A stretch of 21,921 bases of DNA, taken from contig USOG01000008.1 in the NCBI GenBank assembly GCA_900556365.1, positions 1-21,921 on the forward strand, in the 5' to 3' direction. The notes under the pieces are model-generated. The model was given only the letters and a program-made list of their open reading frames with translations, searched no databases and was not told where the DNA came from. This DNA is from an uncultured Collinsella sp. (GTDB lineage: Bacteria; Actinomycetota; Coriobacteriia; Coriobacteriales; Coriobacteriaceae). The position numbers and the translations under genes were made by a program. Each line of letters starts with the position of its first letter. The first letter of the stretch is position 1. Positions 2,793 to 21,631 of the stretch are shown here, in pieces.

Positions 2793-2928
2793 AGCGTTTA
2801 AGCTTCGCGACGGAAAACGCAGATGAAACGAACCATATACCGTTGCTTTGGGGCATAGCCCCGCTTCATCTTCTCTCGCGCAGCCAACTGAATGATGCGA
2901 TTTGGGTGCTGGAAGATGGGGAGAGCTC

Positions 2929-7360: not shown

Positions 7361-7382
7361 GTTCTTGCTTCGTGTTGATATC

Positions 7383-7458
7383 GGGTCGTTAGCTCAGTTG
7401 GTAGAGCAGGGGACTCTTAATCCCAAGGTCCAGGGTTCGAACCCCTGACGGCCCACCA
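7383..7458 (+). tRNA. tRNA-Lys (anticodon CTT), copy 1
   Basis: A 76-nt cloverleaf: acceptor GGGTCGT pairs with ACGGCCC, anticodon loop CTCTTAA gives CTT, T-loop TTCGAAC, encoded CCA after A73. Lies 22 bp after tRNA-His. Confidence 0.96.
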
Positions 7459-7471
7459 CACGATATCTCCT

Positions 7472-7500
7472 CTAAAGTCCGTCATAACGGACTTTAGCTT
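7472..7500 (+). terminator. Hairpin between the two tRNA-Lys genes
   Basis: A perfect 11-bp stem CTAAAGTCCGT/ACGGACTTTAG with a CATA loop, followed only by CTT before the next tRNA begins at 7502. The short T-run makes it a weak terminator or a processing/spacer hairpin. Confidence 0.5.
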
Positions 7501-7501
7501 T

Positions 7502-7577
7502 GGGTCGTTAGCTCAGTTGGTAGAGCAGGGGACTCTTAATCCCAAGGTCCAGGGTTCGACCCCCTGACGGCCCACCA
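7502..7577 (+). tRNA. tRNA-Lys (anticodon CTT), copy 2
   Basis: Identical to copy 1 except one T-loop base (TTCGACC instead of TTCGAAC). CCA is encoded. Having two CTT genes fits heavy use of AAG codons in this GC-rich genome. Confidence 0.95.
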
Positions 7578-7987: not shown

Positions 7988-8758
7988 ATGGATAAGAACA
8001 ACCTCAACACCCAAGACGGCTAGGGTCTGAACCTCATTCCCGATGGGGGCGACGACGTCAAGGTGTCATTGAAGCGAAAGGTCGCCATCGGCGTGGTCGT
8101 TGCGCTCATTGTCGCGGGGCTCGGGCTCGGCAGCGCTTGGGTGACCGGTGCCTCTGCGCTCAAGTCCGAGACCGCCAAGATCGAGGCCAATTCGGACGAC
8201 GACAAGAAGCAGGTCTCGAAGAAGTCAAGCAAGGACGTGGTGAACGAGGTCACGGATAACGCCTCCAAGGCGCTGGCAGCTGACGAGGAGAAGATCTACC
8301 AGAAGAAGGACACCGCGACCGATAGTGCCGTGAAGGCCGAGGACAAGAAGGCTGATGCTGCGAAGCCGTCGACGGGCTCTAACTCCGCACCATCCAAATC
8401 TGACTCCAAGCCGTCCTCGGGTTCCGCCGGCAAGCCGTCTCATGAGCACGCATGGCAGATGCGGTCCCCCAACGACCCCGTATACGAGACGCGAACTCGA
8501 ACTGTGATTGATCAGCCAGCATGGGACGAAACGGTTAGCGCTGGCTACGATGAATTTAGATTCTCTGACGGCTACGTAACCACTTCTCTCACTGATGCTA
8601 TTAGCCATCAAGATGGAACCGGTTGCTCTTACTCTATTTATATGTCTCAAGTGTCTGTTCACCATGCTGCCGTTACACATGTAGAACAATATCAAGTTCA
8701 GACCGGTACCAAGTAGGTTCTCACCGGCTACCGCTGCTCCGGGTGCGGTGCTACATAA
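7988..8758 (+). pseudogene. Membrane-anchored zinc-knuckle-type surface protein gene with two in-frame amber codons
   Basis: The apparent gene starts at ATG 7988, seven bases after AAAGG, and runs to TAA at 8756-8758. It is interrupted by TAG at codon 12 (8021-8023) and at codon 243 (8714-8716). The open part between can only begin at GTG 8063, which lacks a good ribosome site. If both TAGs are read as sense, the 256-residue product has a short cytoplasmic start, one transmembrane helix (about residues 31-52), a Lys/Ser/Asp-rich linker, and a C-terminal domain with HEHAW (H152, H154). That domain continues with VYETRTRTVIDQPAWDETV and ends in YRCSGCGAT (C250, C253) after the second TAG. The paired H-x-H and C-x-x-C suggest metal binding and show that the 3' tail belongs to the gene. 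CAG (Gln) is one change from TAG at both sites. From about 8580 the sequence becomes AT-richer with T-ending codons. It is a pseudogene, an assembly error, or a case of amber readthrough. Confidence 0.75.
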
Positions 8759-9065: not shown

Positions 9066-10055
9066 TTACAGCAGGGTGGCGCAGGTGCCCTCAGCCATGG
9101 CGGGAATAGCGGCAACGCCCTGATCGACCATGCAGTCTACATCGATATCGGTGTAGAACGCGATGTGATTGGTGAGCAGCACGTTGGGGAATTGGCGCAG
9201 GTAGGCCATCTTGCGGTTTGCAAGAATGTCGTGCATGCGGTTCTCGTGGTAGATGCCCACCTCGTCCTCGAAGACGTCCATAGCAAGCGCGCCGATTTTT
9301 TCAGACTCAATTGCCTCGATGACCGCATCGGTGTCGATGAGCTCGCCGCGCGAGACGTTGACGATGGTCACGTCGTCTCGCATCTTGGCGATGGCGGCGG
9401 CATCGATGATGCCGCGGGTGGAGTTCATGAGGGGCACGTGCAGGGTGATGACGTCGGAGTTGGTAACGAGCGTGTCCATGTCGAGGTACTCGAGGTTGTC
9501 GCGCTCTGCCAGCTCGGCGTTGGGATAGGGGTCGTAGGCCAGGATTTTGCAGCCAAAGCCGGAGAGTATGTCGATGACGGCGCGACCAATGCGTCCGGTG
9601 CCCACCACGCCCACGGTCAGCGTGCGCAGTTCGCGGCCCAGCAGGCCCTCCAGGGAGTAGTCGTTCACTTGCTGGCGCCAAATGGCGGCCTTGCAGCGGC
9701 GCAGAGCCATCAGGATAAGCATAACGGTGAACTCGGCAACGCCGTGGGGCGGATAGTTGGTATTGCACACCTTGATACCCAGCTCCTGAGCGCGCTTAAC
9801 GTCTACGTGGTTGTAGCCAACGCAACGGATGGCGATATAGCGAACGCCCAACTCGTGCACGCGCTCTACCAATGCGCTGGACATCACGGACTTATTGTTG
9901 ATGACGATTCCCTCGCAGCCTGCAACGGAGTCGATATTGGCTTCGGAGAGGATTTGGGTGTCATAGGAGATAGAGTAGCCCGCCGGAAGATTGTCGACGG
10001 CGCGCAGGTAGGCGGCAACCTCGTCGTCGCGCAACTCGAACAGTCTGATATTCAT
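9066..10055 (-). CDS. ldhA: D-lactate dehydrogenase (D-2-hydroxyacid dehydrogenase family)
   Basis: NAD-dependent reduction of pyruvate to D-lactate in the cytoplasm, regenerating NAD in fermentation. The ATG at 10055 (MNIRLFELRD) is chosen over an upstream in-frame ATG because AAAGGAACGCT precedes it; the protein is then 329 residues, normal for D-LDH. Rossmann motif GTGRIG is at 152-157 with D175 selecting NAD. The catalytic triad is R236 (NVSRGELID), E265 (VFEDE) and H297 (TNHIAFYT), numbered almost exactly as in lactobacillar D-LDH. VanH dehydrogenases are in the same family, but no vancomycin cluster is here. A possible -10 (TATTAT) is on the minus strand at 10163-10168. The gene diverges from the PRD regulator, and the shared spacer holds the proposed operator at 10219-10241, so it may belong to the PTS regulon. 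A related 2-hydroxyacid substrate cannot be excluded. Confidence 0.88.
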   Translation of the reverse strand: MNIRLFELRDDEVAAYLRAVDNLPAGYSISYDTQILSEANIDSVAGCEGIVINNKSVMSSALVERVHELGVRYIAIRCVGYNHVDVKRAQELGIKVCNTNYPPHGVAEFTVMLILMALRRCKAAIWRQQVNDYSLEGLLGRELRTLTVGVVGTGRIGRAVIDILSGFGCKILAYDPYPNAELAERDNLEYLDMDTLVTNSDVITLHVPLMNSTRGIIDAAAIAKMRDDVTIVNVSRGELIDTDAVIEAIESEKIGALAMDVFEDEVGIYHENRMHDILANRKMAYLRQFPNVLLTNHIAFYTDIDVDCMVDQGVAAIPAMAEGTCATLL

Positions 10056-10218
10056 AGCGTTCCTTTCCTGTGTCGGCGTATCATGCGTCGCGTCCGATAC
10101 CTGTGTGGCCCGTCCGCTACACCCAGGGACAGCGTTTCCGTGGCGCATCCGCAGGCGACACGATAATAGGCGGTTCTATACGCCGCAACATCGCATAAAT
10201 CAGTACATCCACGATTGC

Positions 10219-10314: not shown

Positions 10315-12225
10315 GTGAGCTTCGATCGAAGCAGGGAAATTGTTCGTATTCTCGAAAGCAGGGCGACCTGGACCACGGCGTCTCAGATCGCTTCGCAGGT
10401 TGGATGCTCCTCCCGTACTGTCAAAAGCGACATCACCACGCTGAATTGTACCTATGAGGGTATGATTGTTGCCAGTTCGAAGGGCTATCGTATCGAGGAT
10501 GTTGCTGCGGCGGCGCAGCTGCTGTCACAGCAGACGACCGAGGTGCCGCAGACGGCCGAGGCACGTAAGCGCTATATTCTGTTTGAATTACTGATGCGTC
10601 GCCGCGAGGTGCGGACGGCTGATTTGGCGGAAAGTCTCTATATCTCACTTGCGACGCTTGATAATGAGCTAGTTGCCATCAAGCGCGAATTATCGGGGTA
10701 CGGTTTGGTGCTGCGTTCTCGCGCGGGCTCGTTGTATATCGAGGGCAGCGCATCGGGCGAGAAGAAGATGGTCAACCAACTGATCTTTGACGAGACGAAG
10801 GATTATTATAGCCAAATCGACCTCATCAATCGCTATTTCCCTAATCTCGACCTCACGGAGCTGCAGGAGCGGATCGACGCATGCCTGAAGCTGCGCGGGT
10901 TCTACATCAACGGCTATGCTCTATCGAGCCTCATCGTGCATATCGCCATCTTTGTAGAGCGCACGAGCAACGGGTTCGAGTCGGTGCCGACGACGGTCAA
11001 AGCGGCCCGTCCCGCCGGCATCGAGATGCGCAAGGGCCTTGACGAGGTGGCGGACGAGATCTGCTCGGCTATCGAGGACCTTTTCTCGGTACACGTGTCC
11101 GATGTTGATCGCGAAGCTGTCCGTTTGATGCTGGGCGCGAACTTGATTCATGCGAATCATTTTGAGCCGAGTGACCCGGAGCACCGGCGAGCGCGCGAGC
11201 TGTTGAGTACAGTCGTGGATCGCGTACGCGATCAATTTGGACTTAATTTGCTAGATGGCGAATTTGAGCTGCGCTTTTCTTTGCATCTGGCCAATATGCT
11301 TTCGCGCGTTCGCTGTGGAATGCTGCTGCGTAACCCGCAGCTCGAGGCCATCAAGAGCAGTCAACCGTTTATTTACGACGTTGCGGTGTTTGTGGCTGAT
11401 GTCATCGCTACGGAGACCGGCGTTTCTGTCAACGAAGACGAAATTGCCTACATCGCGCTCCACGTGGGGTGTTTGGTGGAGGAGCAGCGCACCAATGCCG
11501 ATAAGCTGCACGCGCTAGTGGTGTGCACGCGCCACAACGCCTATCGGACCCATATCGACAGTTTCCTCGATGCCCTTGATGCTTGTGTTGTGGTTGAAGG
11601 TATCGCGCCCACCATCGAAGCAGTGGGCAACATCTCGCGCGTTGACCTCGTGATTTCGGCCGTGCCGCTGTCGGGGTATTGCCCGGTGCCGGTGGTAAAT
11701 ATCTCGCCGTTCTTTAGCAAGCAAGATATTTCACTGACGCGTGAGCGTGTCGAAGCACTGCTCAAGGCGCGTCAGCGTGCCGACCTTGAGCGTAGCATGC
11801 GCACCTTCTTTACGGAGGATTTCTTTGCAATTGAGCCCAAAGTTGCCGACTGGCGCGATGCAATTTGCAAGATGAGCGCGCCACTGATCGAGGGTGGTTA
11901 CGCGTTCGAGGATTTCACCGAGCGTCTGCTGGAGCGCGAGGAGATCAGCGCCAGTGCATACTGCGACATCGCAATGCCTCACCCGCTCGATATGGACGCC
12001 AAGCGCACTGCCGTCTCGGTCGCGCTCTTCCCGCGTGGCCTTGCGTGGAACAACGCAACGGTGCATGCGGTGATCATGCTGGCGATTACCCGTGATGACC
12101 GGGCATTTTTTGGCGAGTTGTTCAATTACATCTCGGGTGTGCTGCTCAAGCCCGGCGCGGTGCGTACCATCTCCCGCGCAAAAAGCTACCAGGAGTTCTT
12201 GGACGCCCTGTTGCGCTGCGCGTAG
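10315..12225 (+). CDS. PRD-domain transcriptional regulator with EIIB-like and EIIA domains (LicR/MtlR type)
   Basis: DNA-binding activator whose activity is set by PTS phosphorylation. Domains in order: N-terminal helix-turn-helix (about 1-60), a second Mga-type helix-turn-helix (about 85-145), PRD1 (about 170-275, H209 in LIVHIAIFVER), and PRD2 (about 295-390, H324 in SLHLANML and H383 in ALHVGCLVEE). An EIIB-like domain (about 398-490) and an EIIA-like domain (about 500-636, H556 in AMPHP) follow. The EIIB-like domain keeps a cysteine (C404) but not the usual Gly/Ser-rich loop. Start is GTG, six bases after AGGAGG. At 636 residues it has the normal size for this class. By family, its activity is raised or lowered by phosphate from HPr and from a cognate EIIB; the lactose/cellobiose-family EIIA-B-C downstream is the obvious partner. 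Probably autoregulated through 10219-10241. Confidence 0.92.
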   Translation: MSFDRSREIVRILESRATWTTASQIASQVGCSSRTVKSDITTLNCTYEGMIVASSKGYRIEDVAAAAQLLSQQTTEVPQTAEARKRYILFELLMRRREVRTADLAESLYISLATLDNELVAIKRELSGYGLVLRSRAGSLYIEGSASGEKKMVNQLIFDETKDYYSQIDLINRYFPNLDLTELQERIDACLKLRGFYINGYALSSLIVHIAIFVERTSNGFESVPTTVKAARPAGIEMRKGLDEVADEICSAIEDLFSVHVSDVDREAVRLMLGANLIHANHFEPSDPEHRRARELLSTVVDRVRDQFGLNLLDGEFELRFSLHLANMLSRVRCGMLLRNPQLEAIKSSQPFIYDVAVFVADVIATETGVSVNEDEIAYIALHVGCLVEEQRTNADKLHALVVCTRHNAYRTHIDSFLDALDACVVVEGIAPTIEAVGNISRVDLVISAVPLSGYCPVPVVNISPFFSKQDISLTRERVEALLKARQRADLERSMRTFFTEDFFAIEPKVADWRDAICKMSAPLIEGGYAFEDFTERLLEREEISASAYCDIAMPHPLDMDAKRTAVSVALFPRGLAWNNATVHAVIMLAITRDDRAFFGELFNYISGVLLKPGAVRTISRAKSYQEFLDALLRCA

Positions 12226-12393: not shown

Positions 12394-13581
12394 CTACTTG
12401 ATGAGTTGGTGAACGGCCATGCGTTCCATGGCCTCGATGACCAGCTTGCGTGGCATACCCAGGTTCAGGCGCACGAAGTCCGCGCCGTTCGCGACATAGA
12501 AGGTTCCGTCGCCCACGATGACGCCAGCCTCTGCTGCCATGTGGTCGCAAATCTCGGTGGCCGTGGTGCCCGTGCCGGCGATGTTTACCCATGGCAGGTA
12601 GGATGCATCCATGCGCATGAGCTCCCAGCCCTCCATCTTCTCCTCGATGAAGGTTGAAACTTGTGCATAAGACTCGCGTAGGTAATCGGTAATCTGGTCC
12701 AGCCACTCTTCGGACTCATCATAGGCGGCGATAATGGCAGCACAGCCAAACGTGTTGGGCGAGGTAATGGAGTTCATTTCCAAGCGATGGCGGAAGATGG
12801 TTCGGATGCGCTCGTTGGGGATTATCGAGTAGGACGTCTTGAGCCCGCCCAGATTAAAGCCCTTGTTGGGCGAGGTGAGCACGATAAGGTTATCCAGGTA
12901 GCACGCGGGTAGCTGCAGGGCCGAGACGAACAAGCCGGCCATGATGTGCTCGCAGTGAACCTCGTCGACCACCAGTAAGCAGTTGTACTTATGGCAGATC
13001 TCGGCGACGCGGGTGATTTCTTCGAGTGTCCAGATACGACCGCCCGGGTTGTGCGGCGAGCAGAACAGGTGCACGCGCGGGCGGAAGCGATCCATCTGCT
13101 CCTCAAGCAGGTCGAAGTCGATGTGATAGGTGCGATCGCGATAGATGAGCGGGTTTTCGATTACGCGAAACCCGTTGTTGTGCGCAGCATAGCCAAAGGG
13201 ATCGTAGACCGGCGTGTTGAGGATGACGCAGTCGTTGGGCTGGCAGAACGCCTGATACAGGTAGTGAATAGTAGGAACGGTGCCGTAGGCGAGTGTAATC
13301 CACTCACGCTTAACCTCGTTGTTGTGGCGGCGGCGCTGCCAGTTGATGACGGCGTTGTAGAAGCCGTCGTGCGCATAGCCATAGCCGTAGGCGCCGTTTT
13401 GGGCCACCTCGGCCAGGCGCGTGCGGATTGCGGGTGCGGCGGCAAAGTCCATATCGGCGATCCACATGGGAATGTAGTCATCGCCCGCCTTGGGGAATTT
13501 CTGTTTGATGATGACGGGGTCCCACTTGCGAGCGTGGTCGAGCGAGCGATCAGCCATGGAATCGAAGTCATAAATCGGCAT
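12394..13581 (-). CDS. MalY/PatB-type PLP-dependent C-S lyase (cystathionine beta-lyase family)
   Basis: Cytosolic fold-type I PLP enzyme. The family cleaves the C-S bond of cystathionine, cysteine or cysteine conjugates, giving pyruvate, ammonia and a thiol. The ATG at 13581 follows GGAGG by 7 bases, giving 395 residues, the usual family length; the upstream in-frame ATG lacks a ribosome site. Motifs: PMWIADMDF at 38-46 (family signature), YGYGYAHDGF, CSPHNPGGR with N178, VVDEVHCEH with D206, and TSPNKGFNLGGLKTSY with the PLP lysine K240. E. coli MalY also represses MalT as a side activity; nothing here shows that role. It diverges from the M42-PTS operon, and the operator-like cluster at 13725-13770 lies between them, so it may be co-regulated. 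Confidence 0.9.
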   Translation of the reverse strand: MPIYDFDSMADRSLDHARKWDPVIIKQKFPKAGDDYIPMWIADMDFAAAPAIRTRLAEVAQNGAYGYGYAHDGFYNAVINWQRRRHNNEVKREWITLAYGTVPTIHYLYQAFCQPNDCVILNTPVYDPFGYAAHNNGFRVIENPLIYRDRTYHIDFDLLEEQMDRFRPRVHLFCSPHNPGGRIWTLEEITRVAEICHKYNCLLVVDEVHCEHIMAGLFVSALQLPACYLDNLIVLTSPNKGFNLGGLKTSYSIIPNERIRTIFRHRLEMNSITSPNTFGCAAIIAAYDESEEWLDQITDYLRESYAQVSTFIEEKMEGWELMRMDASYLPWVNIAGTGTTATEICDHMAAEAGVIVGDGTFYVANGADFVRLNLGMPRKLVIEAMERMAVHQLIK

Positions 13582-13924
13582 AAGGTGTCCTCCTTGGCAA
13601 AACTGAAGCGACCCGCGTCTGCAGGTCGTGCACCGCCAGCGTGATTCGCACTTGCGGTGGCACATGTTGCAATCAAGTATGGCAAAGATGCGCGTGGCGC
13701 CCCATCCCTAACAATTGCACGGCCACGGTGAAGAGAGAGGCCCTTTCACCGTTTCACCGCTACGGTGCAAGCCCGGATACATCATTTGTGGCGCACTGTC
13801 GATACACTTGCTTTCAGACGTCGCCACTGTGGGCGCCGCCATCGAAGGTGGGTGACGAAGACCCCGGTGCCTGTGCACCGTGTTTTCCCACACGTCGCCG
13901 TTCAACCACAAGGGGAGGTTGCCA
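13582..13924. promoter_or_regulatory. Divergent control region between the C-S lyase and the PTS-peptidase operon
   Basis: A 343-bp noncoding region holding the half-site cluster at 13725-13770. I cannot assign a convincing -35/-10 pair for either direction. A candidate -10 (GATACA, 13776-13781) sits 17 bp after TTCACC of the operator, which would place the operator over the -35. A GGTGCCTGTGCACC hairpin near 13865-13878 is also present. Confidence 0.45.
13725..13770. promoter_or_regulatory. Proposed operator cluster of the PRD regulator, site 2
   Basis: Four half-sites: GGTGAA at 13727-13732 (reverse), TTTCACC at 13744-13750 and 13752-13758 (forward), and GGTGCAA at 13764-13770 (reverse). 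The last two form TTTCACC-GCTAC-GGTGCAA, with the same arms and 5-bp spacing as site 1 apart from one base. The first two also form an 8-bp inverted repeat (ACGGTGAA/TTCACCGT). Confidence 0.6.
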
Positions 13925-14971
13925 ATGAATAAGGAGCTTATGTTCGCCTTGAGCAATGCAGACGCTGTCGCATGCCGCGAGGGTGAGGTCCGCTCCATCA
14001 TGCACGCCGAGCTTGACGATATCGCCGACGCTGTCGAGTACGACAAACTCGGTTCGATTATGTTCAAGAGCGCGGGAACCGAGGAGAATCCGGTTCGCAT
14101 TCTGTTTACCGGCCACATGGACGAGGCCGGCTTTATGGTTCGCTACATTTCCGATATCGGCATGGTTCATGTAATCGGTGTGGGCGGTCCGCGTAAGAAC
14201 AGCGTTGAGAGCCAGATCGTGCGTATCAAGACGCGTAGCGGCGAGAAAGTGCGCGGCGTGTTGTTTGCCAAGCGCGATGCCGACGGCACTCCGACCGATA
14301 TGTACATTGACTTTGGCTGCGAGACGGCCGAGGAGGTCCGTGAGCTGGGCATTGAGATTGGCGACTGGGGAACCTTTGCCGCCGAGTGTGAGCTCAAGCC
14401 CGTGGGTGACATCCTGCTGGGCAAGGCGTTCGACGACCGCGCCGGTGTGTACGTGGTAACCGAGGCCATGAAGCGTCTGGCCAACACCCCACACGCAGCC
14501 GAGCTGTGGTTCGCCGGCTCTTCTTCTGAAGAGGTTGGCTGCCGCGGTGCTCAGACGGCCACGGCGCATCTGGATGCCGATATCGTCATTCCGGTGGATA
14601 TTGCCAATCCGCCTGAGTTCGATCGCGGCTGGAATAACAGCCGCAAGAATGGTCACGGCCCCATGATCGTGCACTACGATCGCATGCACGTTCCCAACGA
14701 GAAGCTGCTGCACTTCATCGTGGACACCGCTGAGAAGAACAACATTCCCTTCCAGCGCGATCTGTTCAAGGGCGGCGGCACTGACGCCGGCACCGCTCAC
14801 CTGGTGGGGGATGGCAAGCTGGCAACGGTGATCGGCGTACCTCTGCGCTACTGCCACGGCTCGTGGTCGGTCATGCGCGGTGCCGATCTGGACGCGGCAG
14901 TCGATCTGTTGTGCGCGCTGGCAACCTCGATCGATCGCGCCACCTATGAGGAGCTCAAGAGCTTCGAGTAG
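13925..14971 (+). CDS. M42 family metallo-aminopeptidase (FrvX/YpdE type)
   Basis: Dizinc or dicobalt aminopeptidase of the M42 clan, normally a large cytosolic tetrahedral particle that trims short peptides. Some members are still labelled cellulase or endoglucanase M, a doubtful name. Start ATG 13925 follows GGGGAGG by 6 bases; 348 residues is normal. Metal and catalytic residues: H64 and D66 (FTGHMDEAGF), D170/D171 (KAFDDRAG), E202/E203 (SSSEEVGCRGAQ), D225 (PVDIANP) and H311 (RYCHGSWS), with the GGGTDAGTAH loop at 283-292. It is first in an operon with lactose/cellobiose-family EIIA, EIIB and EIIC. In E. coli, homologues FrvX and YpdE also sit in PTS operons, which suggests it acts on an internalised phosphorylated peptide-containing compound. 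That role is inference. Confidence 0.92.
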   Translation: MNKELMFALSNADAVACREGEVRSIMHAELDDIADAVEYDKLGSIMFKSAGTEENPVRILFTGHMDEAGFMVRYISDIGMVHVIGVGGPRKNSVESQIVRIKTRSGEKVRGVLFAKRDADGTPTDMYIDFGCETAEEVRELGIEIGDWGTFAAECELKPVGDILLGKAFDDRAGVYVVTEAMKRLANTPHAAELWFAGSSSEEVGCRGAQTATAHLDADIVIPVDIANPPEFDRGWNNSRKNGHGPMIVHYDRMHVPNEKLLHFIVDTAEKNNIPFQRDLFKGGGTDAGTAHLVGDGKLATVIGVPLRYCHGSWSVMRGADLDAAVDLLCALATSIDRATYEELKSFE

Positions 14972-15049
14972 CGCTCCGCAGTCAATGGTTTCAATCGGGC
15001 ACGCCGCCAAAATGATGACGCGCCCGCCGAGCAGAAAAGGATTTATTCG

Positions 15050-15376
15050 GTGGAAAACAACGAACAGCAGATTATGACCATCATCGGCTCTGCCGGTGCC
15101 AGCAAGGGCAAGGCGTTCGCCGCGCTCGCTTGCGTGCGCGAGCACGACTACGAGGGCGCCCGTGCGCTGCTCGCCGAGGCCAAGGAGGCCGACCTGGCCG
15201 CTCATGCCGCTCAGACCGAGGTGATTACCCAAGCCCTGTCTGGTGCCGAAAACGCCGATGCTGCAAGTCTGCTTATGGTCCACGCCCAGGATCACTATAT
15301 GACCTCTCAGCTCGCTCGCGATCTTATCGAGGAGATCGTCAAGATCTTCGAGGAGCGCGACGCCCAGGCCAAGTAG
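15050..15376 (+). CDS. PTS lactose/cellobiose-family EIIA
   Basis: Cytosolic trimeric phosphocarrier that takes phosphate from HPr and passes it to EIIB. The 108-residue all-helical domain has the active-site motif LLMVHAQDHYM with H78 phosphorylated and D81 as the trimer metal ligand; the numbering matches EIIA-Lac. GTG start with AAAAGGA 8 bases upstream. It lies 78 bp after the M42 gene and 99 bp before EIIB. C-terminal helix RDLIEEIVKIFEERD is typical. Sugar specificity in this family ranges over lactose, cellobiose and N,N'-diacetylchitobiose and cannot be read from EIIA. Confidence 0.93.
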   Translation: MENNEQQIMTIIGSAGASKGKAFAALACVREHDYEGARALLAEAKEADLAAHAAQTEVITQALSGAENADAASLLMVHAQDHYMTSQLARDLIEEIVKIFEERDAQAK

Positions 15377-15395
15377 GCGTAGGACACGCGTCTGC

Positions 15396-15437
15396 GAAGG
15401 GGCGATGCGCGCCTCGATCGCTGCAGCCCGTCCCTTC
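15396..15437 (+). promoter_or_regulatory. Intra-operon hairpin between EIIA and EIIB
   Basis: GAAGGGGCG pairs with CGTCCCTTC (nine pairs, one G-T) around a 24-nt GC-rich loop. TCAAACTGTCTTTATTTG follows without a clean T-run. Possibly a partial terminator or mRNA processing/stability element that adjusts EIIA and EIIB levels. Confidence 0.4.
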
Positions 15438-15475
15438 TCAAACTGTCTTTATTTGTCGTTAGAAAGGACAAGACA

Positions 15476-15838
15476 ATGGCAAAGATGAACATCGTTCTGT
15501 GCTGTGCCGGTGGTTTTTCCACCACCATGCTGATGGATCGTATCAAACAGACGATCCATAACAGCCAGAAGCTCAACGACGATGACTTTGAGTTTAAGGC
15601 TATCGCCGCCGACCTGCTCGATCAGGAGATCGATCACATGGACGCGCTGATTATGGGTCCCCAAATCGCCCATAAGTTCGAGTCCATCAGGCCCCTGATC
15701 GAGCCGCGTCACATCCCGTACGTGATCGTCGATCAGGAGACCTACGGCAAGATGGACGGCGCTACCGTGTTCAAGCAGCTGCTCATCGCTAAGAAAAAGG
15801 CTGACATGGCCCGCGAGGCCACCAAGGCAAACCAGTAA
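15476..15838 (+). CDS. PTS lactose/cellobiose-family EIIB
   Basis: Cytosolic phosphocarrier that accepts phosphate from EIIA on a cysteine and gives it to the sugar bound by EIIC. The 120-residue protein begins with a beta strand, NIVLCCAGGFSTTMLM; C10 aligns with the catalytic cysteine of ChbB/LicB, and the Gly/Ser/Thr-rich P-loop is intact. C9 is an extra adjacent cysteine. MGPQIAHKF near residues 60-68 matches the family's second conserved segment. GAAAGGACAAGACA precedes the ATG. It is the expected donor for the PRD/EIIA regulator at 10315. Confidence 0.93.
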   Translation: MAKMNIVLCCAGGFSTTMLMDRIKQTIHNSQKLNDDDFEFKAIAADLLDQEIDHMDALIMGPQIAHKFESIRPLIEPRHIPYVIVDQETYGKMDGATVFKQLLIAKKKADMAREATKANQ

Positions 15839-15877
15839 ACCCCTGTCTGATATTCCCTGAAATGGAGGATGCGACGT

Positions 15878-17134
15878 ATGTCGGAGACTGTAGAGAAAAA
15901 GCAGAGTGCCTTCGATAAGTTCGAAAACCTGCTGAACACCTATCTTGGCCCTGTTGCCGAGAAGATGGACAAGCAGCGTCACCTGTCCGCAGTTAAGAAG
16001 GCCATGATCGCCATGACCCCTCTGCTGCTGATCGGTTCGTTCTGCCTGATCCCAGCCGCCATTCCCAACATGATTGGCGAGACCAACCCCATCTCCGTTT
16101 GGATTCTGAACAACACCCAGTACTTCGATTTGGCCTACAACGTTTCCATGGGTCTGATGTCGGTCTTCGTTTCCGTCGTTACCGCCTATCACCTGGCCAA
16201 GTCCTATGACCTGGACATCCCTGGCTCCATGTCCATGGCTCTCGTTGGCTTCCTACTGCTCGGCATGGAAATGGACGAGGCCGGCGGCATCGCGCTGGGC
16301 GGCATGGGCTCCAAGGGCCTGTTCGTTTCCATGGTTGCCTCGCTGCTCGCAGTCGAGGTGTATCGTTGGTGCAAGAAGCGACACTTTACCATCAAGATGC
16401 CCGATACCGTGCCCGACTTTATTTCGAGCTCCTTTGAGATTATCCCGGTCACCGCTATCGTCATCGGCCTGTTCTTGGGCGTCCGTGTTTTGTGCCAGGG
16501 CGTTTTCGGCATCATGCCCAACGAGATCTTCTCAATCATCTTGGCCCCGCTCGTCGGTTCGATGGACAGCCCGCTTGCCGTTACCTTCTACCACATCCTG
16601 CGCTGCTTCATCTTCTTCTTCGGTATTCACCCCTCTGTTCTGTCCCCGATCGTTCAGCCGATCTCCACGCAGTTCCTGGCTGAGAACATCGCTGCGGTTC
16701 AGGGCGGCGGTGTCGCTACCCACATCTTCACCCCTGGTCCCATGTCTGCGTTTGGCGGTTTCACCGGACTGGGCGTGACCATGGGCGTTGTTATCTGGTT
16801 CATGTTCTCCAAGTCCAAGGCTCAGCGCGAGATTGGCCGCATCGCCTTCATCCCGTCGCTGTTCGGCGTAAACGAGCCGATTCTGTTCGGTGCTCCGATT
16901 GTTCTGAACCCGATCTTCTTCATCCCGTTCGTTATCTTTGGCGGCATTCTGTCCTCCATTCCGTTCTGGTTCATGAGCTGGGGTTGGGTGCCCTGCTCCA
17001 CCTTCACGCCTCCCTACGTCGGTGTGTTCCTGGAGGGCTTCCTGACCAACATGTCTTGGACGTCGATTGTGGCCAACGTGGTCCAGCTGGTCCTTGCGCT
17101 GATCGTGTACTACCCGTTCTGCAAGGTTGCCTAG
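15878..17134 (+). CDS. PTS lactose/cellobiose-family EIIC permease, probably lacking its C-terminal tail
   Basis: Integral membrane sugar transporter that couples uptake to phosphorylation by EIIB. ATG 15878 is chosen because GGAGG is 9 bases upstream, whereas the in-frame ATG at 15869 abuts it. The 418-residue product has about ten hydrophobic helices, the conserved FGIHPSVLSPI segment (a conserved His in the translocation domain) and GVNEPILFGAP, the sugar-binding NEP motif typical of ChbC/LicC. The first 45 residues are the usual amphipathic leader (FDKFENLLNTYLGPVAEKM). The gene stops at TAG right after YYPFCKVA, and the same frame stays open for 33 charged codons to a second TAG. Family members usually carry such a tail and are 430-450 residues long. 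Transport function is probably kept. Confidence 0.93.
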   Translation: MSETVEKKQSAFDKFENLLNTYLGPVAEKMDKQRHLSAVKKAMIAMTPLLLIGSFCLIPAAIPNMIGETNPISVWILNNTQYFDLAYNVSMGLMSVFVSVVTAYHLAKSYDLDIPGSMSMALVGFLLLGMEMDEAGGIALGGMGSKGLFVSMVASLLAVEVYRWCKKRHFTIKMPDTVPDFISSSFEIIPVTAIVIGLFLGVRVLCQGVFGIMPNEIFSIILAPLVGSMDSPLAVTFYHILRCFIFFFGIHPSVLSPIVQPISTQFLAENIAAVQGGGVATHIFTPGPMSAFGGFTGLGVTMGVVIWFMFSKSKAQREIGRIAFIPSLFGVNEPILFGAPIVLNPIFFIPFVIFGGILSSIPFWFMSWGWVPCSTFTPPYVGVFLEGFLTNMSWTSIVANVVQLVLALIVYYPFCKVA

Positions 17135-17236
17135 AAGCGTGCACTGGCTGAAGAGGCCCGTGTGGCGGCTGAGAAGCATTCCGAGATTTCTGCCGAAGAT
17201 GCGGCGTTGCTCGAGGATCTTGATCTTGACTTCTAG
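17132..17236 (+). other. In-frame coding remnant (or readthrough tail) after the EIIC amber stop
   Basis: TAG at 17132-17134 is followed by 33 sense codons ending at TAG 17234-17236. The encoded peptide begins KRALAEEARVAAEK and ends LLEDLDLDF: a highly charged helical tail of the kind seen on lactose/cellobiose EIICs. No ribosome site suggests a separate gene. A single change from GAG or CAG would explain the TAG. Confidence 0.6.
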
Positions 17237-17284
17237 TCAACTGAAATAGCCGGTGCCTGTACCTGCTGATTTCGAAAGCATGAA

Positions 17285-17324
17285 AGCCCGGCGATGGGGG
17301 AGTGACCTCATTGTCGGGCTCCTT
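17285..17324 (+). terminator. Hairpin between EIIC and the M24 peptidase gene
   Basis: AGCCCGGCGATG pairs with CATTGTCGGGCT (G-T pairs allowed), extendable by GG/CC toward the loop, then CCTTTG. The T-run is weak, so it may be a leaky terminator letting part of the PTS transcript continue into the peptidase gene. Confidence 0.5.
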
Positions 17325-17342
17325 TGAAAGGCGATACGTTCG

Positions 17343-18416
17343 ATGAACGCACATGTGGACAATATTTATACCTTCTTGGACGAGCACAAGCTCGATGCGC
17401 TGTTAATCAAGAGCAAGACCATGAAGCGCTATCTGGGCACGTTGACCGGCAGCGGTTGCAAGGTGCTCTTTACGCGCGACCGTGGTTTTCTCATCATGGA
17501 CGGCCGTTACGTGAACGAGGCTCGGGAACGCGAATTCGATCTGGAGTTTCGTGTCCACGAGCAGGGGACGAGCTATCTGGCCGAGCTTGAGCGTGCACTC
17601 AAAGAGTGTGGCTGCTCTACGTTGGGCATCGAGGAGTCCGAAATCACGATTTCGGAATACCGCAACTTGGAAGGCTTGGGCCTTGACATCACGCTGCTGG
17701 GCAGCGAGATGGCGTTGATGCGCTTGCGCAAGGATGAAGCCGAGATCGCGGCGGTTCAGCATGCGGTCGATGTTGCCGACGACGTGTACGCCAAGACGAC
17801 CGAGCGGCTGCACGTGGGTATGACCGAATTTGAAATCTCTGCGCTCGTGCACTATTACTCGATTGCCGCTGGTGCCGAGGCAATGTCGTTCGATACTATC
17901 GTTGCCACCGGCGAGCGCAGCGCCATGCCTCACGGTCGTCCTACCGACCGCAGGGTCCAGGCGCACGAACCGATTCTGATCGACTTCGGCGTGCAGATCA
18001 ACGGCTATCAGTCCGATATGACGCGCGTGTGCTTCCTTGGCGCCCCGACCGACCAGATGGCTCATGTGTACGAGACTGTTTTGAATGCTCACCTTGCAGG
18101 TATCGATGCTATTCGTTGTGGTGTGGTGGCGCGCGATGTGGATGCGGCCGCGCGTCGTGTTATTACCAAGGCGGGGTATGGTGAGTATTTCACCCATGGA
18201 CTTGGTCACGGTATCGGCATGGGTGGCGACTTGCCACTGTTGAACACCTCTGGTGACATCGTGCTCGACAACGGAATGATTATGTCCTGCGAGCCGGGCG
18301 TGTATATTCCTGGAGTCGGCGGCGTGCGTATTGAGGACGACGTGTTGCTGAAAGACGGCGTTTCATGCCCGCTCAACCATACCGACAAACAGTTGCGTAT
18401 TCTCGATGTGAGGTAG
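17343..18416 (+). CDS. M24 family Xaa-Pro aminopeptidase/dipeptidase (YpdF/PepP/PepQ type)
   Basis: Cytosolic dimetal peptidase that removes residues next to proline. The N-terminal creatinase-like domain covers about 1-125 and the pita-bread catalytic domain about 130-357. Metal ligands are all present: D214 (LIDFGVQING), D225 (SDMTR), H289 (GLGHGIG), E317 (SCEPGVY) and E331 (VRIEDDV); H197 (AMPHGRP) is the usual substrate contact. ATG with GAAAGG upstream. At 357 residues it resembles E. coli YpdF (about 360), which sits in a PTS operon next to the M42 enzyme YpdE. It lies downstream of EIIC, separated by the hairpin at 17285, and 3 bp before the RDD gene, so the last two are certainly co-transcribed. 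Exact specificity (dipeptidase or aminopeptidase) is not readable. Confidence 0.93.
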   Translation: MNAHVDNIYTFLDEHKLDALLIKSKTMKRYLGTLTGSGCKVLFTRDRGFLIMDGRYVNEAREREFDLEFRVHEQGTSYLAELERALKECGCSTLGIEESEITISEYRNLEGLGLDITLLGSEMALMRLRKDEAEIAAVQHAVDVADDVYAKTTERLHVGMTEFEISALVHYYSIAAGAEAMSFDTIVATGERSAMPHGRPTDRRVQAHEPILIDFGVQINGYQSDMTRVCFLGAPTDQMAHVYETVLNAHLAGIDAIRCGVVARDVDAAARRVITKAGYGEYFTHGLGHGIGMGGDLPLLNTSGDIVLDNGMIMSCEPGVYIPGVGGVRIEDDVLLKDGVSCPLNHTDKQLRILDVR

Positions 18417-18419
18417 CGC

Positions 18420-19106
18420 ATGACTAAAAAACGCAAGAAACAGCGACGTGAGGCGAGCGCGGAGCAGGCACCTTCTGCTGCGACGAGCATTGCAAGCGAG
18501 ACCCATAAGGAATCGAATGCCGATGCATGCTCGATTCTGTCGGCGCCCCCGCTGTCACGTTTGTACGCCTACGTTATCGACTGGATTTTGGGTGGCATTG
18601 TCTCTGGTTTGCCGGCCGTGATGGTTTATCTTGTGCTGACCCATAAGAACGAGATGTTCACCGACCTATACGTGTTCGAGGCAATGGGATATCGCTGGAG
18701 CGTCGGCATTGTGGTCGGACTTTTGTGCGTGCTTGCCGCCATCGCATACTTTGTGCTGATTCCGTTGCTGGTGTGGCCGGGGCAGACTCCGGGCAAGCGT
18801 ATTGCGCATGTGCGTGTCGCCACACTTGATGGCAGCTTGCCTTCTATTGGACGCTTGATCTGGCGCCAGGTTATCGTGGGCTTTTTGCTCGAAGGCAGCG
18901 GGTACGTGGTGTCCCGGTATATTCGCGAGATGGCGGTGCTCATCACCCGCGTTGACGTGAATTATTACTGGGAGATCGCGGGTATGATTGTTACGGCGGT
19001 GTCGCTGCTCATGTTCCTGATTATCCCGGCTCGTCGCTGCGTTCACGATTACCTGGCTGGCACGTGCGTGGTTCCCGCTGAGGGACATCCGCTGTATCAG
19101 GGGTAG
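18420..19106 (+). CDS. RDD family integral membrane protein
   Basis: Membrane protein of 228 residues with a basic, Lys/Arg-rich start (MTKKRKKQRR), a Ser/Ala-rich soluble segment to about 43, then several hydrophobic helices. RDD-domain signatures: PLSRLYAYVIDWILGG (R47, D54), WPGQTPGKRIAHVRVATLDG near 118-140, and the C-terminal RRCVHDYLAGT. Some RDD proteins have been linked to ion or solute transport; most are uncharacterised. It starts 3 bp after the M24 peptidase stop, with GAGGT inside that gene's end, so the two are translationally close. Confidence 0.9.
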   Translation: MTKKRKKQRREASAEQAPSAATSIASETHKESNADACSILSAPPLSRLYAYVIDWILGGIVSGLPAVMVYLVLTHKNEMFTDLYVFEAMGYRWSVGIVVGLLCVLAAIAYFVLIPLLVWPGQTPGKRIAHVRVATLDGSLPSIGRLIWRQVIVGFLLEGSGYVVSRYIREMAVLITRVDVNYYWEIAGMIVTAVSLLMFLIIPARRCVHDYLAGTCVVPAEGHPLYQG

Positions 19107-19153
19107 TCGACTGTGGATTTGTCGCGGCGACGTTGCCCGCGGTCTTCTTGTTG

Positions 19154-19182
19154 TTGGTTACATATGTGATGTTCGGTATGTA
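19154..19182 (+). promoter_or_regulatory. Candidate promoter for the HPr gene
   Basis: TTGGTT at 19154-19159 and TATGTA at 19177-19182 with a 17-bp spacer, in the 141-bp gap before ptsH. Moderate consensus match. Confidence 0.4.
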
Positions 19183-19247
19183 TCTGCCTTGCCTAACGTG
19201 TGCGTTGGGGTAAAAGGATTGCTCGGTCTATTACGAAGGAGTTAGAA

Positions 19248-19520
19248 ATGTACAATAAGATTGTTATGGTCGTTAACCCCACTGGTCTTCACGCCCGCCC
19301 TGCGGCGACGCTGGCGACCGAGGCTGCGAAGTTTGTCTCGAAGATTGAGGTCCGCAACGCCTCCAGGGATGGCGACTTCAAGGACGCTAAGTCCATGATC
19401 GCTATCATGACCTCAGGTATTACCCAGAACGATAAGGTTGAGTTGCGTGCCGAGGGCGACGACGAGATTGCCGCCGTGGACACGTTGGTCGCTCTTATTG
19501 AGGGTGGCTTCGGCGAGTAG
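19248..19520 (+). CDS. ptsH: HPr phosphocarrier protein
   Basis: Small cytosolic phosphocarrier (90 residues) that passes phosphate from enzyme I to EIIA proteins. The active site NPTGLHARPA places the phosphorylated histidine at H15, the canonical number. DAKSMIAIM contains S49, in the position of the regulatory serine (Ser46 in Bacillus); spacing is three residues longer, in the NASRDGDF loop. ATG with GAAGGAG 6 bases upstream is chosen over an in-frame ATG at 19200. No enzyme I gene is in this window. The protein could be the cell's general HPr or one dedicated to the adjacent PTS; its own promoter and terminator favour the former. Confidence 0.95.
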   Translation: MYNKIVMVVNPTGLHARPAATLATEAAKFVSKIEVRNASRDGDFKDAKSMIAIMTSGITQNDKVELRAEGDDEIAAVDTLVALIEGGFGE

Positions 19521-19916: not shown

Positions 19917-21443
19917 TTAGTCTGCTCGATAGTGTGAACCTAAGCTTTCAGTTCGCTTGCGCATGGCTTTGACCATTTCCTGTGCCAGCTGAATCTGCGA
20001 TTGCAGGCGGGCGAGGGCTGCGACTTCGCTGTCCTGGGCTTTCTGTGTGCTCAAGGTCGTTGCCTCCGTCTTCAAGCCCTCAAGCTCGTGTAGTGCTTCG
20101 GATAGGCCTGTTTCGGTGCGGTTGATCATGCAATAGGTGCTCATCGTGTGCTTAAGGCCGTGTGTCAGGCGTTCGGCATCTGTTGTGGCAATGCCGTAGT
20201 GGGGGAGGGCGATATCCGCCTTCAGGGGTGTCTCAGGCTCTTTCTGCGCTGCAAGGGCTGCCGATGCGCCCGCGATGCGTCCGAACACGATGCCGTTGGC
20301 GCTTGACAAGCCACCAATGCGGTCGGCGCCGTGCATGCCGCCTGTCGCCTCGCCGCAAGCGTAGAGGCCCTCAACGCCCGTGTGCGCGGTCTTATCGATC
20401 TTGATGCCGCCATTAGCGGCGTGGGCATACATCGCAACGCGCATCTCGTCAGTCGGAGCGATGCCGTGCTCGTCTTGCAGCCAGGTGGCAAAGGTCTGCA
20501 CAAACTCTGGGACATCCTCGCGGGGGAAGTCGTAGTGGAGTGCCAGGCCTTCGACACCTGCCTGATCGATGACGAGATCGATAGCGCGGGAGGCCAGGCG
20601 CGAAGTGAAAGGGCCATATCCAGAGCGCTGCTCGAGCAGGTCGTCCAGCTTGTCGTCGGCAATATCTACCGGCTGGTCTACATGTACGTAGCGCCAGGTT
20701 TTCTCGTTGAAGACCAAGTTACGCCTGGGCTCGATGAAGCCGGGCATCATCTGCATGAACTCTATATTAGTAAGTGTTGCGCCGTGCGCCAGTGCGATGG
20801 CCTGCGAGGAGCTGAGCACATCAGCCGACGTAAGGCTGCGCTCGAACAGGCCGCCTGTGCCACCGGCTGCGATGATCGTGGCCTTGGCAGCAAAGGGCAC
20901 GATTCGATTTTCGGTAAGGTCGTAGAGTACGGTTCCGGTTATTCTGCCGTTCGTGTCCTCAACAAGGTCGATAAGCTCATGGCGGGGGAGTAGGCGAATG
21001 CCGAGCGACTCGATCCAGGTCGTCAGAGCGTCCTCAAGGGGCTTGCGGGTGAGGCCGCGCCACATGCGCGTCTTGTGGTCAAAGCAGGGGATAAACTGCT
21101 TTTGCTGAGCGCTCTCAGCGTTTTGCGGACGCTGGAGCTCAACGCCCAGGTCTTGCTCGAGCCAGTCAATCGCTTGGGGAATGCCGTGGACGAACGTTTG
21201 GACGAGTTCGGGGTCGGCGACACCGCCGCCGACGGTCTGGATGGTGTCGATGAGGTCCTGCTCGTCGTCTTCGTCGACGGGACCGATGAGGCCGAGGCCC
21301 CAGGTACCCGGGAAGAAGCTCGATCCACTCATGGTCTTGCCGGCGCTTGTCACAGTGACGGTTGCACCCGTGCGTGCCGCTTCGATGGCGGCACAAAGGC
21401 CCGCAATGCCAGATCCAATTACCAGTACATCAGTCGATTCCAT
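19917..21443 (-). CDS. FAD-dependent oxidoreductase, fumarate reductase/L-aspartate oxidase family
   Basis: Flavoprotein of 508 residues. The start at 21443 (MESTDVLVIG) follows GAAAGGAATCCG. The FAD Rossmann motif is GSGIAG at 10-15, preceded by DVLVI. A second FAD segment is TIIAAGGTGGL near residues 200-210. The C-terminal family signature reads HAANGGIKID, then GLYACGEATGGMHGADRIGG and SSANGIVFGRIAG. This matches the FrdA/SdhA/NadB superfamily, closest by eye to NadB-like or soluble fumarate-reductase-like flavoproteins; the last 90 residues are a helical NadB/SdhA-like domain. No nadA/nadC or frdB/C genes adjoin, so NAD synthesis or respiration cannot be assigned. No signal peptide, so the enzyme is probably cytosolic. 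Transcribed alone. Confidence 0.88.
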   Translation of the reverse strand: MESTDVLVIGSGIAGLCAAIEAARTGATVTVTSAGKTMSGSSFFPGTWGLGLIGPVDEDDEQDLIDTIQTVGGGVADPELVQTFVHGIPQAIDWLEQDLGVELQRPQNAESAQQKQFIPCFDHKTRMWRGLTRKPLEDALTTWIESLGIRLLPRHELIDLVEDTNGRITGTVLYDLTENRIVPFAAKATIIAAGGTGGLFERSLTSADVLSSSQAIALAHGATLTNIEFMQMMPGFIEPRRNLVFNEKTWRYVHVDQPVDIADDKLDDLLEQRSGYGPFTSRLASRAIDLVIDQAGVEGLALHYDFPREDVPEFVQTFATWLQDEHGIAPTDEMRVAMYAHAANGGIKIDKTAHTGVEGLYACGEATGGMHGADRIGGLSSANGIVFGRIAGASAALAAQKEPETPLKADIALPHYGIATTDAERLTHGLKHTMSTYCMINRTETGLSEALHELEGLKTEATTLSTQKAQDSEVAALARLQSQIQLAQEMVKAMRKRTESLGSHYRAD

Positions 21444-21631
21444 CGGATTCCTTTCTCGTCCGGCGCATTGTCGCACGGGTGATCGGCAATGGGGCCGCAA
21501 AGACCCGTCAAATCGGTAAAGGGCAAATATGGCAGGTGGGCGTCATGGACGCTCTGACGCTCCATCTCTTCACATCTCGTATTTCGCCCCAGCTGATATA
21601 TCGGCATTAGATACCCTGCGCCAGCGCAAAC

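What the first reader, a model, noticed from the sequence alone, without database searches (positions are those of the whole stretch)
13925..19520. Lactose/cellobiose-type PTS built into an operon with M42 and M24 peptidases and HPr, without a glycosidase
Gene order is M42 aminopeptidase, EIIA, EIIB, EIIC, M24 Xaa-Pro peptidase, RDD protein, HPr. No phospho-glycosidase is present, although this PTS family usually pairs with one. E. coli fry/ypd (YpdE M42, YpdF M24, fructose-type EII) and frv (FrvX M42, BglG-like FrvR) have the same logic with an unrelated EII family, so the association has probably arisen more than once. I infer a substrate that carries both a PTS-recognised sugar and an amino acid or peptide part, such as a glycated or glycosylated peptide. 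The nearby C-S lyase hints that a thiol conjugate is also possible.
Basis: partly seen in the sequence, partly recalled or inferred. Interest (0 to 1): 0.75.

Follow-up and report, generated by a model that had tools for sequence, protein, structure and literature searches.

The report
Sugar-import operon with peptidases and lyase
A gut bacterium carries a sugar-import gene cluster in which two peptidases and a carbon-sulfur lyase stand where a sugar-splitting enzyme is expected; the same set recurs in distant bacteria, which suggests that it imports sugars bound to amino acids or short peptides.

Summary
The window (Collinsella) encodes a PRD activator, a divergent MalY/PatB-type PLP lyase, M42, lactose-family EIIA-EIIB-EIIC, M24, RDD and HPr. 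A scan seeded only with EIIC fetched 20 loci from Collinsella, Erysipelotrichia, Clostridia and Lactobacillaceae; all 20 carry PRD, M42, EIIA, EIIB, EIIC, M24 and lyase. RDD is in 15 of 20, HPr only in the 3 Collinsella. No GH1/GH4 lies inside these operons; two carriers show no GH1 and no above-cut-off GH4 genome-wide. Of 4 next-nearest EIIC relatives outside the operon, 3 sit with a GH4 gene. Collinsella uses a lyase from a different clade, kin to lyases of MalX-MalY-like PTS operons, so the lyase was exchanged while the function stayed. RidA, which clears the aminoacrylate made by beta-elimination, lies next to 3 of 20. Best reading: a PTS for sugar-amino-acid or sugar-peptide conjugates; peptidases trim, and a PLP beta-lyase makes the cut a phospho-glycosidase would make. 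The substrate is inferred, not shown. One paper draws this cluster (L. sakei LT-13) without assigning its function.

The parts
10315..12225 (+). PRD-type PTS-responsive regulator (HTH_11, Mga HTH, PRD, C-terminal EIIA_2 domain)
   Evidence: Pfam; nearest NCBIfam models AcpB/EbpR/MafR and FrvR, below cut-off; next to the operon in 20 of 20 loci
12394..13665 (-). MalY/PatB-type PLP C-S (beta-)lyase, divergent from the operon here, co-directional in the Firmicutes; the true start may lie downstream of 13665
   Evidence: TIGR04350 327.7 bits against cut-off 340; PDB kin 8y54, 3dzz; K268 and R399 invariant in 23 lyases
13925..14971 (+). M42 aminopeptidase, closest to YpdE
   Evidence: PF05343; NF007421 378.3 bits against cut-off 412; H64, D66, D170, E202, E203, D225, H311 invariant in 11 rows (roles recalled)
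15050..15376 (+). EIIA, lactose/cellobiose family
   Evidence: PF02255; H78 and D81 invariant in 23
15476..15838 (+). EIIB, lactose/cellobiose family
   Evidence: PF02302; C10 invariant in 23
15869..17134 (+). EIIC, lactose/cellobiose family; stops at an in-frame TAG and lacks the about 34-residue acidic tail of relatives
   Evidence: TIGR00410; match to structure 3qnq; H254, N335, E336 invariant in 11 rows; for the stop
17343..18416 (+). M24 peptidase (Xaa-Pro type), best NCBIfam model YpdF
   Evidence: PF00557 + PF01321; NF007310 223.9 bits against cut-off 393; D214, D225, H289, E317, E331 invariant in 23 (roles recalled)
18420..19106 (+). RDD-family membrane protein, role unknown
   Evidence: PF06271; present in 15 of 20 loci
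19248..19520 (+). HPr, found in this operon only in Collinsella and not the only HPr of its genome
   Evidence: PF00381; carriers G005, G032, G035 have 4, 3 and 5 HPr hits; 3 of 20 loci have it
9066..10148 (-). D-isomer 2-hydroxyacid dehydrogenase beside the cassette (possible member)
   Evidence: PF02826, PF00389; beside the cassette in L032/L052 and in L033/L035 (two genomes, each fetched twice); not seen in L034/L036, whose contig ends about 2.3 kb beyond the regulator

Best explanation
It is a PTS catabolic operon for a sugar joined to an amino acid or short peptide. Shown here: a conserved set of regulator, lactose-type EIIA/B/C, M42, M24 and PLP beta-lyase that is inherited as a unit, with catalytic residues kept, and without GH1 or GH4. 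Inferred: EIIC imports the conjugate and EIIB phosphorylates its sugar; the M42 aminopeptidase and the M24 (Xaa-Pro-type) peptidase remove the other residues; the MalY/PatB lyase then cuts the bond between the sugar and the last cysteine (S-link) or serine/threonine (O-link) by beta-elimination, giving a sugar- or thiosugar-phosphate plus 2-aminoacrylate, which becomes pyruvate and ammonia (RidA helps where present). The lyase thus takes the place of the usual phospho-glycosidase. The PRD regulator switches the operon on through PTS phosphorylation.
For: 20 of 20 loci fetched by EIIC alone hold PRD, M42, EIIA, EIIB, EIIC, M24 and lyase; 17 of these are outside Collinsella. Operon EIICs form one clade, 23 of 23, against 29 others (SH-aLRT 99, quick tree with long-branch warnings). 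In 395 Bacilli genomes, operon-grade EIIC and operon-grade M42 occur in the same 6 and in no other: G061 and G072 supplied alignment rows, G062 and G063 were among the 20 loci, G184 and G415 were new and hold the full set. Of 4 next-nearest EIICs outside the operon, all 4 have a PRD regulator and 3 a GH4 gene. Two of 20 carriers (Peptacetobacter hominis, Clostridium sp. KNHs214) show no GH1 and no above-cut-off GH4 in the genome held. The lyase was exchanged yet kept: the 22 lyases inside M42-PTS operons are not one clade (AU p 1e-6), while EIIC rejects the grouping of Collinsella with L087 that the lyases show (p 4e-6). RidA lies 5 and 27 bp behind the lyase in L042 and L054 and about 210 bp upstream of the regulator in L047; 26 RidA genes in about 57 Mb would put about 0.01 within 500 bp of 20 operons by chance (my estimate). 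The lyase encoded in such a cluster in L. sakei LT-13 has PLP beta-lyase activity on L-Cys, cystine and cystathionine in vitro (PMC5845896, abstract and passages).
Against: No substrate is known. GH1 is found in 18 and GH4 (over cut-off) in 16 of 20 carrier genomes, so a distant phospho-glycosidase is possible for most; no completeness figure was given for the two that lack both. RidA is adjacent in only 3 of 20, and two carriers (G067, G069) have none. L. sakei MalY also racemises many amino acids (PMC5845896), so elimination may not be its only task. Beta-elimination from an O-glycosyl serine by this family is not known to me, and S-glycosyl-cysteine peptides are not a common known nutrient. 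Lactose-family EIIC is thought to have a disaccharide-sized pocket (recalled), which limits the size of any peptide part. The AU groupings were named after the trees were seen, and EIIB does not reject the grouping (p 0.113), M42 only weakly (p 0.022).
Confidence: 0.42

Rival explanations
1. Thiol scavenging: EIIC imports a cysteine-bearing pseudo-disaccharide (bacillithiol-, mycothiol-like or another cysteinyl-amino-sugar) or its S-conjugate; the peptidases cut the Cys-amino-sugar amide and the lyase turns free Cys or its S-conjugate into pyruvate, ammonia and a thiol or H2S.
For: The lyase of the L. sakei cluster acts on L-Cys, cystine and cystathionine in vitro (PMC5845896); C. difficile MalY, in another PTS operon, is described as a demonstrated cysteine desulfhydrase (PMC6143707 passages); the only solved EIIC matched is 3qnq, which was solved with an amino-sugar disaccharide (recalled).
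Against: It leaves the remaining glycoside without a glycosidase in the operon, and needs both peptidases for a single amide bond. No transport data.
Confidence: 0.15
2. Plain disaccharide PTS: the sugar-phosphate is split by a GH1/GH4 enzyme encoded elsewhere, and peptidases plus lyase are nitrogen/sulfur-salvage genes co-expressed for physiological reasons.
For: 18 of 20 carriers encode GH1 and 16 of 20 GH4 over cut-off; the family usually carries disaccharides (recalled).
Against: Two carriers show neither over cut-off; the gene set is kept across two phyla in 20 of 20 loci; 3 of 4 next-nearest EIICs have a GH4 gene beside them.
Confidence: 0.17
3. Regulatory or racemase role of the lyase: it acts as a ligand-sensing regulator (as E. 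coli MalY on MalT) or as an amino-acid racemase for conjugates with D-amino acids, such as muropeptide fragments; EII and peptidases do the catabolism.
For: L. sakei MalY racemises Ala, Ser, Met and others (PMC5845896). E. coli MalY is annotated as negative regulator of MalT activity/cystathionine beta-lyase.
Against: Adjacent RidA in 3 of 20 points to eliminated enamines; the L. sakei authors found no MalT homologue in LT-13 (passage; not looked for in the carriers here); none of the window's operon genes is of a muramic-acid etherase or glucosaminidase family.
Confidence: 0.12
4. Peptidases and lyase act on an unrelated peptide pool and the PTS acts as a sensor of carbon state (gene set kept for co-regulation, with the EII as a signal input to the PRD regulator).
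For: A PRD-type regulator gene adjoins the operon in all 20 loci; its EIIA-type domain was tested in the window only; Collinsella adds an HPr.
Against: EIIC keeps H254 and E336 in 11 of 11 rows (roles recalled), so it looks like a working permease.
Confidence: 0.07

Closest known systems
malY cluster LACBS_00568-00576 of Lactobacillus sakei LT-13 (PMC5845896, legend and discussion passages)
   Same: Same gene list by the figure legend: PRD, PRD, aminopeptidase, EIIA, EIIB, EIIC (lactose/cellobiose), RDD, aminopeptidase, maltose regulon modulator (MalY); absent from strain LK-145, so accessory there too.
   Different: RDD lies between EIIC and the second peptidase; no HPr listed. The paper assigns no function to the cluster; its sequence was not fetched here.
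E. coli fry-ypd (fryBC-ypdFE-fryA)
   Same: PTS genes flank an M24-type (YpdF) and an M42-type (YpdE) aminopeptidase gene; YpdE and YpdF are the best NCBIfam models for the window's two peptidases.
   Different: EII of the fructose type (recalled), no lyase or PRD regulator among the annotated neighbours; both window peptidases fall below the YpdE/YpdF cut-offs.
E. coli frv and sgc
   Same: EII plus an M42 gene: frvX beside frvB and frvR (FrvR as PRD-type is recalled), sgcX beside sgcB and sgcC.
   Different: Other EII families (recalled), no M24 or lyase among the annotated neighbours; FrvX model 168.2 bits against cut-off 569.
malXY of E. coli; malX-malY-like operons in lactobacilli (L085, L086); C. 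difficile malY operon CD3027-CD3030
   Same: PTS gene next to a MalY-type lyase (PMC6143707 passages); RidA behind EIIA in L085 and L086. The lyases of L085 and L086 are the closest non-Collinsella ones to the window's (56% and 50%).
   Different: Glucose-family EIICB and EIIA_1 in L085/L086; no peptidase among the 10 genes of these two operons that were examined.
PRD + lactose-type EII + GH4 neighbourhoods (L102, L125, L127)
   Same: PRD regulator and next-nearest EIIC relatives (36-39%).
   Different: A GH4 gene instead of M42, M24 and lyase.
L. casei alf-2 (fucosyl-GlcNAc-Asn), PMC6960285
   Same: An operon for a sugar-amino-acid conjugate with a peptidase gene (outline and passages).
   Different: MFS permease rather than PTS, glycosylasparaginase rather than lyase; the peptidase was not needed for the glycoamino acid.

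Membership tests
Lactose-family PTS permease | EIIA PF02255 with its active histidine (His78) | tested here: met
   H78 invariant in 23; the role of His78 is recalled
Lactose-family PTS permease | EIIB PF02302 with its active cysteine near the N-terminus | tested here: met
   C10 invariant in 23
Lactose-family PTS permease | EIIC of TIGR00410 over cut-off | tested here: met
   236.8 against 236 bits, a narrow pass
Lactose-family PTS permease | usual partner phospho-glycosidase GH1/GH4 in the operon | tested here: not met
   no GH1/GH4 match in the window or inside the 20 operons, and no gap between their genes over 647 bp; nearest in flanks: L042 (GH4), L043 (GH1), L052 (GH1). A habit of the family, not a defining feature
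E. coli fry-ypd system | YpdE and YpdF over NCBIfam cut-offs | tested here: not met
   378.3 against 412; 223.9 against 393; trees unresolved
E. coli fry-ypd system | fructose-type EII | tested here: not met
   EII here is lactose-type
E. coli frv system | FrvX and FrvR over cut-offs | tested here: not met
   168.2 against 569; 60.2 against 426
PatB C-S lyase (TIGR04350) | score over the curated cut-off | tested here: not met
   327.7 against 340, just below
PatB/MalY C-S lyase | PLP lysine, DxxH and carboxylate-binding Arg | tested here: met
   K268, D234, H237, R399 invariant in 23 lyases (roles recalled)
malXY-type PTS-lyase operon | glucose-family EIICB next to the lyase | tested here: not met
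   no match to the L085 EIICB in the window or L032-L034 by tblastn
PTS for glyco-amino acids or glycopeptides (proposed) | uptake and phosphorylation of such a conjugate | not testable with these tools
   needs transport and growth assays

The most novel reading that the evidence does not exclude
A widespread, horizontally moving PTS pathway for glycopeptides or glyco-amino acids in which a PLP beta-lyase cleaves the phosphorylated sugar from the amino acid by elimination. It would join two orphan associations into one logic: PTS with M42/M24 peptidases (fry-ypd, frv, sgc) and PTS with MalY (malXY).
Probability: 0.33. Interest if true: 0.82.

Novelty: new variant of a known kind. Interest (0 to 1): 0.63.

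Why it matters
PTS operons with M42 peptidases stand in E. coli without a substrate known to me, and the in-cell ligand of E. coli MalY is described as unclear (PMC5845896 discussion passage). Here one conserved operon holds both, across two phyla, so each part limits what the substrate can be. If the reading is right, PTS uptake reaches beyond free sugars to sugar-peptide conjugates, with a lyase instead of a glycosidase, relevant to gut bacteria and food lactobacilli. It is testable with isolates such as Longicatena caecimuris, Collinsella tanakaei and Lactobacillus sakei LT-13.

Tried and rejected
Considered and set aside: HPr as a core part (only the 3 Collinsella of 20 loci). The 2-hydroxyacid dehydrogenase as core (not seen in C. 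tanakaei An791, L034/L036, where the contig ends soon; no tblastn match in the Firmicutes loci). GH1 of L032/L052 as partner: it lies 2.4 kb downstream on the other strand with its own EIIC and is not in the window. The M42-EIIA fusion P0196 as proof of coupling: one contig, and M42 and EIIA overlap in its nearest relatives L038 and L039, so it could be a frame change; kept only as a weak hint. Ancestry of YpdE/YpdF: trees unresolved. Muropeptide and Amadori substrates: no etherase, glucosaminidase or deglycase family among the window's operon genes. Structure prediction and fold search were not used, nor the third protein search.

Ten of the 20 loci supplied seeds for the annotation. L123 is nearly identical to L040. 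All trees are quick trees with SH-aLRT only; one search warns of long branches. In some searches I had labelled the L085 lyase as an operon lyase; one search showed it to lie in the adjoining MalXY-like operon, so I repeated the tests without it (first results: lyase p 0.00028, EIIC 0.007, M42 0.137, M24 0.009, EIIB 0.037). In the EIIC trees L054 entered as its first half only (split frame). In some searches at most 4 or 5 candidates a genome were scored. Flank genes had no full domain scan: 118 flanking ORFs were listed, but only GH1, GH4, RidA, LDH, glucose-type EII and the operon seeds were searched by tblastn. Match lists were cut; the per-genome counts of 14 and 34 were not. Not-in-print statements rest on paper searches in open-licence papers only.


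Full report
What is there. To it must be added a PRD-type regulator with a C-terminal EIIA_2 domain (10315-12225, +) and a MalY/PatB-type lyase (12394-13665, -). A 2-hydroxyacid dehydrogenase (9066-10148, -) flanks the block. The EIIC of the window ends at an in-frame TAG about 34 residues before relatives end; intact copies exist in relatives, so either a nonsense change or an assembly error removed the conserved acidic tail.

Conservation within the genus. The window's own assembly is not held. Among 58 relatives, of which 35 are the nearest genome and its genus, orthologues of EIIC (85-98%), M42 (86-99%) and M24 (74-93%) occur in G005, G032 and G035 and in no other genome. The remaining matches are distant: EIIC at most 36%, M42 at most 33% (40% over one short piece), M24 at most 43% among those listed. 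In all three carriers the order PRD, lyase, M42, EIIA, EIIB, EIIC, M24, RDD, HPr is kept. It is thus an accessory cassette inherited whole.

Conservation beyond. The protein search with M42 brought kin from Firmicutes at about 50%, and one natural M42-EIIA fusion, P0196. A genome scan with an EIIC alignment gave 20 loci: 3 Collinsella, 6 of Erysipelotrichales-type genera (Floccifex, two Faecalibacillus, Massilimicrobiota, Longicatena, one unnamed), 5 Clostridium (cel8, chromiireducens, KNHs214, intestinale, CL-2), 2 Peptacetobacter and 4 Lactobacillaceae. tblastn annotation found PRD, M42, EIIA, EIIB, EIIC, M24 and lyase in 20 of 20; RDD in 15 of 20 (not in L046, L047, L049, L050, L053); HPr in 3 of 20. 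In the 17 Firmicutes loci the lyase is co-directional and close behind M24. The PRD gene of L035 and the EIIC of L054 each appear in two frames. Two genomes hold a second copy (L087 complete but for RDD; L085 with the lyase in an adjoining operon).

Specific co-occurrence. In 395 Bacilli genomes drawn evenly from the class of G061, EIIC matches of 772 bits or more occur in 6 genomes, and the next fall to 357 bits. M42 matches of 548 bits or more occur in the same 6, and the next fall to 333 bits, in 44 other genomes at E 1e-90. Of the six, G061 and G072 had supplied alignment rows and G062 and G063 were among the 20 loci; G184 and G415 were new, and both carry the full set.

No GH1/GH4, but one in sister systems. 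GH1 and GH4 seeds find nothing in the window or inside the operons; in the flanks they hit L042 (GH4, 5 kb beyond the operon), L043 (GH1, 6.5 kb beyond) and L052/L032 (GH1 with its own EIIC on the other strand). The longest gap between neighbouring core genes is 647 bp, in L042; in the other 19 it is 293 bp or less. Whole-genome searches of the 20 carriers show GH1 in 18 and GH4 over cut-off in 16; Peptacetobacter hominis (G071) has neither, and Clostridium sp. KNHs214 (G073) has no GH1 and only a sub-threshold GH4 match. Four next-nearest non-operon EIICs were examined, L102, L125, L126 and L127 (34-39%): all four lie with a PRD regulator, three with a GH4 gene, and three with EIIA and EIIB genes found. 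So a like chassis (regulator plus EII) carries a glycosidase in one set and M42, M24 and lyase in the other.

The lyase is core and was exchanged. In the EIIC tree all 23 operon copies form one clade (SH-aLRT 99) with Collinsella among Erysipelotrichia and Clostridium. In the lyase tree Collinsella groups with L087, L085 and the non-operon L059, apart from the 17 Firmicutes operon lyases (the join with L087 has support 88, that with L085 and L059 100). Holding the 22 lyases of true M42-PTS operons together is rejected (AU p 1e-6). The trees of EIIC (p 4e-6), M24 (p 0.0008) and, weakly, M42 (p 0.022) reject joining Collinsella with L087; EIIB does not (p 0.113). The groups were named after seeing the trees. 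The L085 and L086 lyases lie in another kind of operon: antiterminator, glucose-family EIICB, lyase, EIIA_1, RidA, like MalX-MalY. A further Clostridium neighbourhood, L103, has a lactose-type EIIC, an RpiR/SIS protein, a lyase and RidA. A lyase related to those of one PTS context thus serves in another, which argues that its chemistry is needed.

Chemistry. RidA abuts the lyase in L042 (5 bp) and L054 (27 bp) and lies about 210 bp before the regulator in L047. The 20 genomes hold 26 RidA genes; by my estimate chance would put about 0.01 within 500 bp of the operons. RidA is described as the major enzyme scavenging aminoacrylate-type intermediates (PMC5270733 passages), which beta-elimination produces. 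The carriers are not uniform: G067 and G069 have no RidA. In L. sakei LT-13 the same gene list surrounds malY, and its enzyme is a PLP beta-lyase (L-Cys, cystine, cystathionine) and a broad racemase; the authors report that most sequenced L. sakei strains, LT-13 included, lack genes for other putative enzymes of the cysteine/methionine pathway (PMC5845896, abstract and passages).

Interpretation. EIIC/B/A conserve residues recalled to be needed for transport and phosphotransfer; peptidases and lyase conserve theirs. The simplest account is a conjugate of a sugar with an amino acid or peptide: imported and phosphorylated, trimmed by M42 and M24, then split by beta-elimination. Which sugar and which linkage are unknown. 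S-glycosyl-cysteine fits the known lyase chemistry best; O-glycosyl-serine/threonine fits commoner glycopeptides, but the reaction would be new to me. Rivals are listed with their tests.

Known or new. M42-PTS operons (fry-ypd, frv, sgc) and PTS-MalY operons (malXY; C. difficile, PMC6143707 passages) are known separately. The combined lactose-type operon is drawn in one paper without a function. The paper searches listed in Tried and rejected found no description of it as a conserved system. I call it a new variant of a known kind.

Noticed in passing
window 17132-17134: In-frame TAG ends EIIC before a conserved acidic tail (ending LDLDF in relatives); the frame behind it stays open. Nonsense change or assembly error.
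   Followed up: partly
L085 6346-18627: Lacticaseibacillus daqingensis has a MalX-MalY-like operon (antiterminator, glucose-type EIICB, lyase, EIIA_1, RidA, lactate/malate dehydrogenase family gene) directly upstream of a second M42-PTS operon.
   Followed up: partly
L103 8829-12508: Clostridium sp. CL-2: lactose-type EIIC, RpiR/SIS protein, MalY-type lyase and RidA in a row: a third kind of PTS-lyase-RidA neighbourhood.
   Followed up: partly
L102, L125, L127: Next-nearest EIIC relatives outside the operon sit with a PRD regulator and GH4, a natural comparison set for substrate residues.
   Followed up: partly
window 19917-21500; L033 5-1360: A fumarate-reductase/aspartate-oxidase-like flavoprotein flanks the cassette downstream in the window, and a 55% relative lies upstream of it in C. 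tanakaei.
   Followed up: no
L035 4577-6489; L054 10016-11328: The PRD gene of C. tanakaei YIT 12063 and the EIIC of L. daqingensis each appear in two frames (frameshift or sequencing error).
   Followed up: no
window 2902-4329 and 8063-8716: Two ORFs of 475 and 217 aa without any Pfam match.
   Followed up: no
window 7284-7577: tRNA-His followed by two tRNA-Lys (CTT) genes.
   Followed up: no
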